From contig NZ_NNRJ01000052.1 of NCBI RefSeq assembly GCF_002252445.1, positions 62,001-126,000 on the forward strand: DNA of 64,000 bases, given 5' to 3'. A program made the position numbers and the translations under genes. Shown here piece by piece: positions 48,432 to 51,153 of this stretch (the first letter of the stretch is position 1; every line of letters begins with the position of its first letter). A model generated the notes under the pieces. The model was not told the origin of the DNA, searched no databases, and worked only from the letters and a program-made list of their open reading frames with translations. The stretch is from Brucella thiophenivorans. Lineage in GTDB: Bacteria > Pseudomonadota > Alphaproteobacteria > Rhizobiales > Rhizobiaceae.

Positions 48432-49466
48432 TTAAGCAGCAAGCGCCTTTGGCGTGATCAGGCCGCGAGCAACCAGCAGTTCTGCGATCTGAATTGTGTT
48501 GAGAGCCGCACCCTTACGCAGATTGTCGGAAACAATCCACATAGCAAGGCCGTTTTCAACGGTAATGTCTTCGCGGATACGGCTAATGAAAGTCGCATCT
48601 TCGCCAGCTGATTCATAAGGCGTGATGTAGCCGCCGTCTTCGTGCTTATCGATAACCTGACAACCCGGCGCTTCACGCAGAATTTCACGGGCTTCTTCGG
48701 CCGAAATCGGGTTTTCGAACTCGATATTGACTGATTCAGAATGACCAATAAACACTGGAACGCGCACAGCAGTCGCCGTGAGCTTGATCTTTGGATCAAG
48801 CATCTTCTTGGTTTCGGCCACCATCTTCCATTCTTCTTTGGTGTAACCATCTTCCATGAAGACATCGATATGCGGGATCACATTGAACGCAATGCGCTTG
48901 GTGAACTTCTGCACTGACACTGGATCAGCGACAAATACCGCGCGTGACTGCTGGAACAGCTCATCCATGCCTTCCTTGCCAGCGCCAGAGACGGACTGGT
49001 AAGTCGAAACGACAACACGCTTGATCTTGGCTGCATCATGCAAAGGCTTGAGCGCCACAACGAGCTGTGCCGTCGAGCAGTTCGGATTGGCGATAATATT
49101 CTTCTTGCGGAAACCTTCAATCGCATCTGGGTTCACTTCTGGAACGATAAGGGGCACGTTCGAGTCATAACGCCACGCGGAAGAATTATCGATAACAACG
49201 CAACCCTGCGCACCGATCTTTGGCGACCATTCCTTGGAAATATTTCCGCCAGCCGACATGAGACAAATGTCGGTATCGGAGAAATCATACTGGTCGAGCG
49301 GCTTAACTTTCAGCGTCTTGTCGCCATAGGATACTTCCGTACCCTGGCTGCGACGCGAAGCAAGAGCCACGACTTCATCAGCCGGAAAGCCACGTTCTTC
49401 AAGGATGTTGAGCATTTCGCGACCGACATTTCCGGTAGCGCCGACGACTGCAATCTTAAAACCCAT
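48432..49466 (-). CDS. asd: Aspartate-semialdehyde dehydrogenase
   Basis: 344 residues, normal. The NADP motif is VGATGNVGREML, the catalytic Cys130 is in ANPNCSTAQLV and the active-site region VPVFIGHSESVNIEFE follows. It reduces aspartyl phosphate to aspartate semialdehyde, the branch-point for lysine (and diaminopimelate for the wall), threonine, methionine and isoleucine. GGAG lies 9 bases before the ATG. An attenuator-like leader precedes it (49497-49694). Confidence 0.97.
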   Translation of the reverse strand: MGFKIAVVGATGNVGREMLNILEERGFPADEVVALASRRSQGTEVSYGDKTLKVKPLDQYDFSDTDICLMSAGGNISKEWSPKIGAQGCVVIDNSSAWRYDSNVPLIVPEVNPDAIEGFRKKNIIANPNCSTAQLVVALKPLHDAAKIKRVVVSTYQSVSGAGKEGMDELFQQSRAVFVADPVSVQKFTKRIAFNVIPHIDVFMEDGYTKEEWKMVAETKKMLDPKIKLTATAVRVPVFIGHSESVNIEFENPISAEEAREILREAPGCQVIDKHEDGGYITPYESAGEDATFISRIREDITVENGLAMWIVSDNLRKGAALNTIQIAELLVARGLITPKALAA

Positions 49467-49496
49467 TTACTTGTCTCCTGTCCTCTCCTCTTCCAT

Positions 49497-49517
49497 AAAA
49501 ACCCGCGACCAGCGGGC
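49497..49517 (-). terminator. Intrinsic terminator in the asd leader (candidate attenuator)
   Basis: On the asd strand GCCCGC-TGGTC-GCGGG is followed directly by TTTTT. It ends 30 bases before the asd start codon and after the Thr/Lys-rich leader frame, so it would stop transcription before asd unless prevented. GGCC repeats just upstream (about 49527-49530 and 49557-49560) offer competing pairings. Confidence 0.7.
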
Positions 49518-49565
49518 CTTTTCCCTGGGCCGGACCCGGGGAGAGAGGGCGAGCAGGCCAAGGGG

Positions 49566-49694
49566 TCAGACCGTTTTGGTGGTCGTTTTAATGCAAGTGG
49601 CCATGGTGGTTTTGGAAACGGACGCCATAGGGATCAAAATGGCGATGAGGCCATTCAGTCCACACAAGCTATGTGATGCGCGACAAGCGTTCAC
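49566..49694 (-). CDS. Candidate asd leader peptide rich in Thr, Lys, Ile and Met
   Basis: A 42-codon frame begins with GTG at 49694, preceded by AAGGAG six bases away, and ends at TGA 49566-49568. Its last 16 residues are SKTTMATCIKTTTKTV: seven Thr, three Lys, one Met and one Ile, all made from aspartate semialdehyde; three more Ile occur earlier (LIAILIPM). A terminator stands between it and asd. This is the plan of a ribosome-controlled attenuator like those before thr, trp or leu operons: shortage of charged tRNA would stall the ribosome and let asd be read. An in-frame ATG at 49628 would give a 20-residue version. Inference from sequence only. Confidence 0.65.
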   Translation of the reverse strand: MNACRASHSLCGLNGLIAILIPMASVSKTTMATCIKTTTKTV

Positions 49695-49718
49695 GGAATT
49701 CTCCTTTTCCGATTGCGC

Positions 49719-49745
49719 TTTTAAGCCCTTTGAAAAAAGAGTCAA
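49719..49745 (-). promoter_or_regulatory. Putative promoter of the asd leader transcript
   Basis: TTGACT (49745-49740) and TTAAAA (49724-49719) with 15 bases between, slightly short. The leader ribosome site begins about 14 bases further on. Confidence 0.4.
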
Positions 49746-50096: not shown

Positions 50097-50369
50097 CTAG
50101 GCCGTGTGGACGATTCTTTTTCGGAGCGTGGTATGGATGAAAATAGCACAGGTTTAGGAGCAAAGCCGAAGGTGGAGTGGTTCTCCATCAAGGTTTTGCG
50201 ACGCAAAGCTGGGTTATTTTCACCATATCCCTTCGGGACGTGGTGGATTTTGTCTCTGAATGCGTCGAACAACCCCTGTGGAGAACCACTCCACGGCGGT
50301 CTGTTCTCCTGTTCAGAAACAAAATCCGTCTCACGCCACGCCCGAAAAATAATCGTCCACACGGCCTAG
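50097..50369. mobile_element. MITE-like element with terminal inverted repeats and TA flanks
   Basis: Both ends read inward as CTAGGCCGTGTGGACGATT, and the match extends to about 35 bases with one mismatch and one 1-base gap. A second inverted pair lies inside: GTGGAGTGGTTCTCCA at 50172-50187 and its complement at 50279-50294. The element is bounded by TA on both sides if the repeat starts at GGCC, as expected for TA-targeting transposases (IS630 or the IS427 group of IS5). It has no transposase and no credible gene, so it would be mobilised in trans. Confidence 0.7.
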
Positions 50370-50683
50370 CAGCACGTCCTTTAACAAGGTCAAAGTCTAT
50401 TTAAATATGCTCGCTCTATTTAAGGTGTTGGACTAATTTTTCTTTTGCGTTTTAACTAATGTAGTTGTTTCAAATGACGTGCGTTTTCTCGGTAAGGATT
50501 TTAGATTGAGTAAAATATTTATACAACGAACTGACGGTATCATATTGGAACTTCTCACTGTATTATCGATAATGTTTGTTATTATTAATAATACACCCAA
50601 TTTCTTATTTAACATTCAGAATACAACAGCACAGCTCCTCAGCATGAAAAAATATATTAGGCCGTGTGGGGATGACTGCCGTC
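50370..50683. other. AT-rich gene-free stretch
   Basis: About 310 bases, distinctly AT-rich (for example 50500-50660). Short frames on both strands have no ribosome site or recognisable product. It ends with an isolated copy of the MITE terminus (50658-50669). Confidence 0.4.
50658..50669 (+). repeat. Isolated MITE/IS terminus
   Basis: TAGGCCGTGTGG repeats the first 12 bases of the element's ends, in the same orientation as the left end, including the flanking TA. The match stops there. It may be the remaining end of a second, destroyed copy. Confidence 0.45.
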
Positions 50684-50789
50684 ATTAGAGCGCGTTTCGA
50701 TTTGATTGAATCAGATCGGCGCCTCATCATTTATTTTAACGCGCATCTTATCCGAAAGCCGTTTCACACCTTTCGGGATGCGCTCTAAT
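50684..50789. repeat. Full-length 106-bp palindromic repeat (Bru-RS-like)
   Basis: The ends ATTAGAGCGC and GCGCTCTAAT are perfect inverses. Inside lie TTTCGATTTGATTGAATCAGATCG and the shared core GCGCATC...GATGCGC (50741-50783), read on the minus strand as the CCCGAAAGGTGTGAAACGG version. It is the most complete copy in the window. Confidence 0.8.
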
Positions 50790-51153
50790 CGCCCCTTCAT
50801 GCGGTCAGTGTCGGCAACCTGACATCAAGGCTATCGAGGATAACGCACTCAAGACCTGGCAGACTGATCAAAAACCTAAATAGATGTCAGGCTTTACGCA
50901 CTGCGCTGAATTATTAAGCTCATCAGAATAACGACAGACCGAATGAAGAATACAGATTGATTAGTCCGAATCAGAAAAAAATATTTTTATCATGGTTAAA
51001 CAACGACGCAGCTTTTCGTAGGCGAAAATAACACCCTAATTCAGGATTTCCCGACCTTACATTGCTGTCGTGCGTACAGGCGAAGAAGATCTTCATTTTT
51101 TATTTCTGCATCAAAAATATCGGCGTTCCGAACAATGACATGAAGGAGGAAGC
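50790..51153. other. Upstream region of the 2-hydroxycarboxylate transporter
   Basis: 364 bases without a gene. It ends in a strong ribosome site AAGGAGGAAGC before the ATG at 51154. I could not pick out a convincing promoter. Confidence 0.4.

What the first reader, a model, noticed from the sequence alone, without database searches (positions are those of the whole stretch)
49497..49745. Candidate attenuator of asd responding to aspartate-family amino acids
Seen: upstream of asd, on its strand, a 42-codon frame with an AAGGAG site ends SKTTMATCIKTTTKTV. Twelve of its last fifteen residues are Thr, Lys, Met or Ile, all derived from the Asd product. A GC-rich hairpin with TTTTT follows, 30 bases before asd. 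Known: leader peptides rich in the regulated amino acid, followed by an intrinsic terminator, control thr, trp, his, leu and ilv operons. Inference: asd is attenuated by charged tRNA-Thr, -Lys, -Met and -Ile. I do not recall an asd attenuator of this type being described, though similar ones may have been predicted. Frame choice and the antiterminator are not proven.
Basis: partly seen in the sequence, partly recalled or inferred. Interest (0 to 1): 0.82.

Follow-up and report, generated by a model that had tools for sequence, protein, structure and literature searches.

The report
Threonine-lysine leader switch before asd
Just ahead of a key gene for making lysine, threonine and related amino acids, rhizobia and their relatives carry a tiny threonine- and lysine-rich reading frame and a foldable RNA that probably lets the ribosome sense shortage of these amino acids and switch the gene on.

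Summary
In detail: on the minus strand, ahead of asd, lies a 42-codon frame with an AAGGAG site that ends ...KTTTKTV, followed by a hairpin with TTTTT. It is far beyond chance. A frame ending in a Thr/Lys cluster precedes asd in 79 of 80 related loci and 25 of 60 order-wide picks. Synonymous sites in the cluster covary as base pairs, and the RNA shows strong covariation. In 150 order genomes the covariance model's 15 full-length hits all adjoin asd; two partial ones do not. The conserved switch is not the TTTTT hairpin, whose U-tract exists in 26 of 80 sequences and 0 of 28 wider-sampled ones, but an upstream hairpin (A) competing with a pairing by the bases just after the leader's stop. Folding with a stalled ribosome predicts a sharp switch at the Thr/Lys codons. 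Full-length equilibrium folds do not show it, and the output (termination or ribosome-site occlusion) is unproven. Rfam has no such family. A translated Sinorhizobium ORF (SEP5) was already suggested as a leader peptide (PMC10117765), so the idea is partly in print.

The parts
49718..49745 (-). Promoter-like TTGACT (49745-49740) - 16 nt - TAAAAG (49723-49718)
   Evidence: Sequence. TTGAC lies 90-260 nt before the leader stop in 79 of 81 sequences, with a -10-like partner in 71 of 81. Not listed by the generic scan.
49701..49706 (-). Ribosome site AAGGAG of the leader ORF
   Evidence: Sequence; similar sites before leader starts of relatives seen by eye, not counted.
49566..49694 (-). Leader ORF, 42 codons, GTG...TGA, ends KTTTKTV
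   Evidence: pN/pS 0.42 and third-position variability in the last 8 codons.
49572..49589 (-). Control-codon cluster K-T-T-T-K-T (codons -7 to -2 before the stop)
   Evidence: Lys at -7 and -3 and Thr at -6, -5, -4, -2 in 78-97% of 72 distinct tails.
49569..49584 (-). P1 (1:2) inner stem: GACC 49584-49581 with GGTC 49572-49569, inside the ORF tail
   Evidence: 94.5% of cells paired in 50 sequences; wobble-site G-C to C-G exchanges on both sides.
49556..49565 (-). Region 2, CCCCTTGGCC just after the leader stop; can pair with region 1 or with region 3
   Evidence: Own against swapped pairing with region 3: 0 of 5000 overall, 15 of 5000 within G1, not significant within G2; shuffled-region control.
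49523..49541 (-). Hairpin A (5' arm 49541-49534, 3' side = region 3, 49531-49523); switch hairpin competing with 2:3
   Evidence: 94.9% of cells paired, C-G/G-C exchange at one pair; stall-dependent folding.
49540..49548 (-). 5' strand of the closing stem
   Evidence: 96.6% of cells paired, U-A/C-G exchange; not supported by the swap test.
49482..49488 (-). 3' strand of the closing stem, GGAGAGG, just upstream of the asd ribosome site
   Evidence: As above.
49497..49516 (-).
   Evidence: Present in the window; U-tract in 26 of 80 and 0 of 28 wider-sampled sequences.
49475..49479 (-). asd ribosome site AGGAG
   Evidence: Sequence.
48432..49466 (-). asd, aspartate-semialdehyde dehydrogenase
   Evidence: NCBIfam TIGR01296 477.6 bits, NF011456 532.7 bits.

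Best explanation
It is a ribosome-mediated attenuator of asd that reads charged tRNA-Thr and tRNA-Lys. Shown by comparison: a leader ORF whose Thr/Lys cluster is kept; a 1:2 hairpin inside its tail; hairpin A; a closing stem beside the asd ribosome site; and, less firmly, the complementarity 2:3. Inferred: when Thr or Lys is scarce a ribosome stalls at codons -8 to -3 and covers region 1. The bases after the stop codon (region 2) then capture the 3' arm of hairpin A (2:3), so hairpin A and the closed domain at the asd start do not form and asd is expressed. When both amino acids are plentiful the ribosome reaches the stop and covers region 2, or leaves and lets 1:2 form. Hairpin A and the closing stem then form and asd is held down. 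The output is most likely reduced access to the asd ribosome site in genera without a U-tract, with hairpin B adding intrinsic termination in the Brucella, Mesorhizobium and Phyllobacterium type. That last step is inference.
For: Leader conserved far beyond chance, with Thr and Lys enriched and Met and Ile not. Synonymous-biased change in the tail: 22 peptides from 39 DNA tails, pN/pS 0.42. Covariation: 90.9% of cells paired, 13 pairs with changes on both sides against a shuffled mean of 7.9 (0 of 500), slid controls at most 58.9%. 2:3 pairs better with its own partner than with swapped ones (0 of 5000; 15 of 5000 within G1; not significant within G2). Decision-window folds of 80 distinct sequences: stall at -8 to -3 gives 6.2-9.4 bp of 2:3 and 0.6-3.2 bp of hairpin A; at -2 to stop 0-0.7 and 7.5-8.1 bp. 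In the Brucella clade (5 sequences) it is 7.7-7.9/0-0.1 against 0-0.1/7.4-7.7. Shuffling region 2 drops 2:3 from 6.34 to 1.38 bp. The RNA model's 15 full-length hits in 150 order genomes all adjoin asd. The tail pattern occurs once in the own genome. A probable homologue is translated in S. meliloti by Ribo-seq and Western blot (PMC10117765).
Against: Full-length equilibrium folding shows no relief of the asd start on stalling: mean opening cost 7.0 (stalled), 5.9 (stop), 6.5 kcal/mol (free); stalling was lower than stop by more than 1 in only 4 of 81 and higher in 31. The window itself goes the wrong way (9.2 stalled, 3.4 stop, 6.7 free), and so do 27 order-wide sequences on average (6.4 against 5.6; lower in 4, higher in 10). 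So the switch needs a co-transcriptional decision. With the two conformers imposed, opening is easier in the ON form in 29 and harder in 12 of 81: 19 against 2 of 24 in G2, 10 against 5 of 40 in other G1, 0 against 5 of 17 Mesorhizobium-type; in the window the gain is only 0.6. In 25 wider-sampled sequences the transient pairing of region 2 is barely above shuffles (12.4 against 10.9 bp, higher in 15). Swap tests ignore tree relatedness, and a control pairing (region 2 with hairpin B) also beat overall permutation though not within groups; the closing stem failed the swap test. No expression data.
Confidence: 0.74

Rival explanations
1. Classical transcription attenuation: hairpin B with its U-tract is the regulated terminator throughout.
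For: A U-tract in the window clade, most Mesorhizobium-type (15 of 17) and Phyllobacterium sequences (26 of 80 in all). In those 26, hairpin B is predicted a little less formed on stalling (0.73 against 0.98 at the stop; 11 of 26 differ by over 0.2).
Against: No U-tract in 54 of 80 or in 28 wider-sampled sequences. Hairpin B is the least conserved of the four stems (75.5% paired). In the window it forms in both states (0.86 and 0.996).
Confidence: 0.15
2. Nascent-peptide arrest: the Lys/Thr-rich tail itself stalls the ribosome (TnaC-like, recalled), sensing a ligand rather than charged tRNA.
For: The tail is strongly conserved in the family and sits at the stop codon.
Against: Spacing and order of Lys and Thr vary in wider-sampled sequences (for example KTTTTTTL, TTKTTTTA, KRTKTTTT), which fits codon identity rather than a peptide motif.
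Confidence: 0.06
3. A structured RNA element regulated by a protein or small molecule, with the ORF incidental.
For: Strong covarying structure near the asd start.
Against: The frame and its Thr/Lys end persist in other families of the order and the tail changes mostly at synonymous sites. No Rfam match at gathering score.
Confidence: 0.05

Closest known systems
E. coli thr operon attenuator (thrL) and the trp/his/leu/ilv class (recalled; class described in the abstract of PMC1183508 as shown in a listing)
   Same: Leader ORF rich in control codons for the pathway's products; alternative hairpins gated by ribosome position.
   Different: Controls asd; reads Thr and Lys, from two branches after the Asd step; the conserved switch hairpin lacks a U-tract and a closing stem reaches the asd ribosome site.
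SEP5 of Sinorhizobium meliloti (PMC10117765, passages read)
   Same: Small ORF with six Thr and three Lys codons near its 3' end in the 5'-UTR of what the authors call the aspartate dehydrogenase gene; translated; suggested leader peptide.
   Different: The authors report conservation only in Sinorhizobium, and the passages I read give no RNA structure. That it is the same element is my inference; I did not see its sequence.
asd RNA motif RF01732 of Lactobacillales and the S. mutans asd attenuator-like sequence cited with it (PMC2864571, passages read)
   Same: RNA element ahead of asd (position of the motif recalled).
   Different: Other phylum; no leader peptide mentioned in the passages read; no Rfam match in the window.
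trp attenuator rnTrpL/peTrpL of S. meliloti (PMC10117765 passages; PMC7298713 abstract start)
   Same: A rhizobial leader-peptide attenuator; there the RNA and peptide also act in trans.
   Different: Trp, leaderless ORF, other operon; no evidence here for action in trans.

Membership tests
Ribosome-mediated attenuators of amino-acid operons | Translated short ORF ahead of the biosynthetic gene | tested here: met
   ORF and coding-type change conserved; translation itself shown only for the probable S. meliloti homologue.
Ribosome-mediated attenuators of amino-acid operons | Clustered control codons for products of the pathway | tested here: met
   Thr 44.6%, Lys 24.9% of the last 12 residues; Met and Ile not enriched.
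Ribosome-mediated attenuators of amino-acid operons | Mutually exclusive RNA folds gated by ribosome position | tested here: met
   Met as a prediction in the decision window; not seen in full-length equilibrium folds.
Classical transcription attenuators | Intrinsic terminator with U-tract as the OFF structure | tested here: not met
   26 of 80 and 0 of 28 wider-sampled; the window has one, but it is not the switch hairpin.
Translational attenuators (ribosome-site occlusion) | OFF fold hides the gene's ribosome site and ON fold frees it | tested here: inconclusive
   Closing stem next to the site conserved; accessibility differs as expected in 19 of 24 of one group, mixed elsewhere.
Ribosome-mediated attenuators of amino-acid operons | Response to starvation for the amino acids | not testable with these tools
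   No expression data.
Rfam families (RF01732 asd motif, lysine riboswitch and others) | Covariance-model match | tested here: not met
   None at gathering score in the window; with E up to 10, five matches on the other strand, all E 0.81 or above and below gathering score.

The most novel reading that the evidence does not exclude
A Thr-plus-Lys attenuator of asd, old in the order Hyphomicrobiales, in which the ribosome-sensing switch was kept while the output changed between lineages: occlusion of the asd start by a three-way junction in genera without a U-tract, and an added intrinsic terminator in the Brucella/Mesorhizobium/Phyllobacterium type. It integrates two branches of one pathway at their shared enzyme.
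Probability: 0.42. Interest if true: 0.66.

Novelty: new variant of a known kind. Interest (0 to 1): 0.52.

Why it matters
It would supply a regulator for the branch-point enzyme of lysine, diaminopimelate, threonine and methionine synthesis across rhizobia and relatives, where none matched in Rfam. It would give a clean case of one ribosome sensor reading two amino acids, and of an attenuator keeping its sensor while its output changes. It would also widen a translated S. meliloti small protein of unclear role into an order-wide family with a testable function.

Tried and rejected
Met/Ile as control codons: rejected on composition. Simple equilibrium occlusion of the asd start relieved by stalling: tested and not supported. 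My first automatic search for hairpin A picked A-to-B hairpins in many sequences (one search was a failed script), so its numbers were replaced by the column-based version. The closing stem got no support from the swap test (4749 of 5000 swaps as good) but strong support from column covariation; I rely on the latter and report both. A first U-tract count that let A-U pairs eat the tract gave 10 of 80 with five or more T; the corrected count is 26 of 80. As the alternative fold, region 2 with the asd ribosome region was worse than swaps (4999 of 5000), and region 2 with hairpin B passed overall (0 of 5000) but not within groups. A conserved hairpin in the ORF body is likely (mean -16.4 against -11.7 for one shuffle each, lower in 68 of 80), but its role was not pursued. 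Paper searches (listings capped, for example 10 of 929 and 20 of 53) showed no description of an asd leader-peptide attenuator other than the SEP5 remark. Term look-ups in PMC1273637, PMC2965389, PMC2573895, PMC4833913 and PMC1262725 found no asd. Vitreschak 2004, cited in several, was not read.

Full report
What is there. The minus strand of the window carries asd at 48432-49466 (TIGR01296 asd_B 477.6 bits and NF011456 532.7 bits). Upstream lies a promoter-like TTGACT-N16-TAAAAG (49745-49718), an AAGGAG site, and a 42-codon ORF from GTG 49694 to TGA 49566 that ends SKTTMATCIKTTTKTV. Ninety-nine bases separate its stop from asd. The window's genus is Brucella in the wide sense: the nearest named loci are B. 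pseudogrignonensis and B. rhizosphaerae (98% identity each).

Is it more than chance. Of the 80 asd loci kept (the best 80 of 587), 79 have a frame ending 40-230 nt before asd with at least 6 Lys+Thr in its last 10 residues, and the other has 5. Base-shuffled upstream regions reached 6 in 0 of 1600 trials and the antisense strand in 0 of 80. In 60 order-wide picks (mostly one per family, from 146 genomes with a match) 25 reach it, against 0.0008 of 1200 shuffles and 0 of 60 antisense. In 20 picks from other orders of the class it is 1 of 20. In the 79 scoring loci Thr makes 44.6% and Lys 24.9% of the last 12 residues, against 3.2% and 1.2% of the body; Met (2.1 against 2.7%) and Ile (4.4 against 3.6%) are not enriched. 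In 72 distinct tails Lys sits at -7 and -3 and Thr at -6, -5, -4 and -2 in 78-97%. In 28 wider-sampled tails (picked for at least 5 Lys+Thr in the last 10) the order varies, but Thr or Lys fills 64-93% of each position from -8 to -2.

It is coding. In the last eight codons, variability by codon position is 0.31, 0.66 and 1.12 bits, and pN/pS is 0.42 over 39 distinct DNA tails giving 22 peptides. The same positions also carry RNA pairing, so this ratio is a mixed signal. A homologue is very probably SEP5 of S. meliloti, a small ORF with six Thr and three Lys codons near its 3' end, in the 5'-UTR of what the authors call the aspartate dehydrogenase gene. It was detected by Ribo-seq and Western blot, suggested to be a leader peptide, and said to be conserved only in Sinorhizobium (PMC10117765, passages read). 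I did not see its sequence.

The RNA. An alignment of 50 representatives of 81 sequences (four odd rows and near-duplicates dropped) was tested for four stems. The inner stem of 1:2 joins the third base of one Thr codon and the next Thr codon with the last Thr and Val codons; 94.5% of cells pair, and the two synonymous wobble pairs exchange G-C for C-G (5 and 22 of 50 sequences). The closing stem pairs the C-rich stretch after the stop with GGAGAG(GG) next to the asd ribosome site (96.6%; at one pair U-A in 24 and C-G in 21). Hairpin A pairs in 94.9% of cells and hairpin B in 75.5%. Overall 90.9% of cells pair (shuffled 83.5, 0 of 500 as high); slid controls give 35-59%. These counts do not correct for relatedness.

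Where it occurs. The model built from that alignment gives 17 matches in 150 order genomes. All 15 full-length ones end at or within 15 bases of the asd start known; the two partial ones do not. In the family it matches 72 of 101 genomes at full length, and there are 17 weak partial matches (E 1.7e-4 or worse) in 8 of them; adjacency to asd was not checked there. The tail pattern, with up to two mismatches, occurs once in the own genome. Rfam has no match at its thresholds in the window; with E up to 10 there are five weak matches, on the other strand.

The switch. Region 2 (the bases after the stop) can pair with region 1 in the ORF tail or with region 3, the 3' arm of hairpin A. Own partners pair better than swapped ones for 1:2, hairpin A and 2:3 (0 of 5000 each; within group G1 0, 22 and 15 of 5000; within G2, the Rhizobium/Agrobacterium group, none is significant). 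I folded RNA up to the end of hairpin A with the ribosome's 3' edge 13 bases from the A-site, for 80 distinct sequences. A ribosome at codons -8 to -3 leaves 2:3 formed (means 6.2-9.4 bp) and hairpin A mostly open (0.6-3.2 bp). At -2, -1 or the stop the reverse holds (0-0.7 and 7.5-8.1 bp). In the window's clade of five the change is complete. Edges of 11 or 15 bases move the switch point by about one codon. The conserved Thr/Lys cluster therefore lies just where stalling would matter. Shuffling region 2 cuts 2:3 from 6.34 to 1.38 bp; 52 of 80 sequences exceed the 95th percentile of their own shuffles. Mesorhizobium-type sequences switch only for stalls nearer the stop (2:3 1.5 bp at -6, 9.3 at -4, 7.7 at -3).

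What speaks against a simple picture. At full length and equilibrium, hairpin A and the closing pairs persist in all states in the group means and in most of the 11 sequences whose folds I looked at, and stalling does not free the asd start. It costs more in 31 and less in 4 of 81, and in the window it costs more: 9.2 stalled against 3.4 at the stop. With the two conformers imposed, the start is easier to open in the ON form in 29 and harder in 12 of 81: 19 against 2 of 24 in G2, 10 against 5 of 40 in other G1 and 0 against 5 of 17 Mesorhizobium-type; in the window 2.6 against 3.2. In 25 wider-sampled sequences transient pairing of region 2 hardly beats shuffles. So the output step is not settled, and the switch must be decided while the RNA is being made, if at all.

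The terminator. Hairpin B has a U-tract in the window and in 26 of 80 distinct sequences in all, among them Brucella-like, Phyllobacterium and 15 of 17 Mesorhizobium-type; in 0 of the 24 G2 sequences and 0 of 28 wider-sampled ones. It may terminate transcription in the clade that has it (formation 0.73 stalled against 0.98 at the stop), but it is not the conserved switch.

Verdict. An attenuator of asd that reads Thr and Lys is well supported by comparison. Its fold switch is supported as a prediction, and its output is open. As the U-tract terminator that defines the classical kind is not general, I call it a new variant of a known kind, with a prior hint in print for one genus.

Noticed in passing
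window 50097-50369: A 273-base element with 28-nt terminal inverted repeats (96% complementary) ending in CTAG; the own genome holds five copies at 95-100% identity (this one included) and several diverged ones, so it looks like a MITE-type repeat.
   Followed up: partly
window 50655-50810: A second stretch that begins with the same TAGGCCGTGTGG motif and holds an imperfect inverted repeat ATTAGAGCGCGTTTCGA/TCGGGATGCGCTCTAAT; perhaps a related or decayed element.
   Followed up: no
leader ORF bodies, 108 to 36 nt before the leader stop (window 49605-49676): A hairpin in the middle of the leader ORF recurs with changing sequence (mean -16.4 against -11.7 for shuffles); it might be a polymerase pause site.
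   Followed up: partly
L074, L098 and L112: Compact versions (69-81 bases from stop to asd), by eye without a clear hairpin B; L074 shows a long 2:3 complementarity GUUCCGCCCC/GGGGCGGGAA. They could serve as minimal models.
   Followed up: no
   Followed up: no
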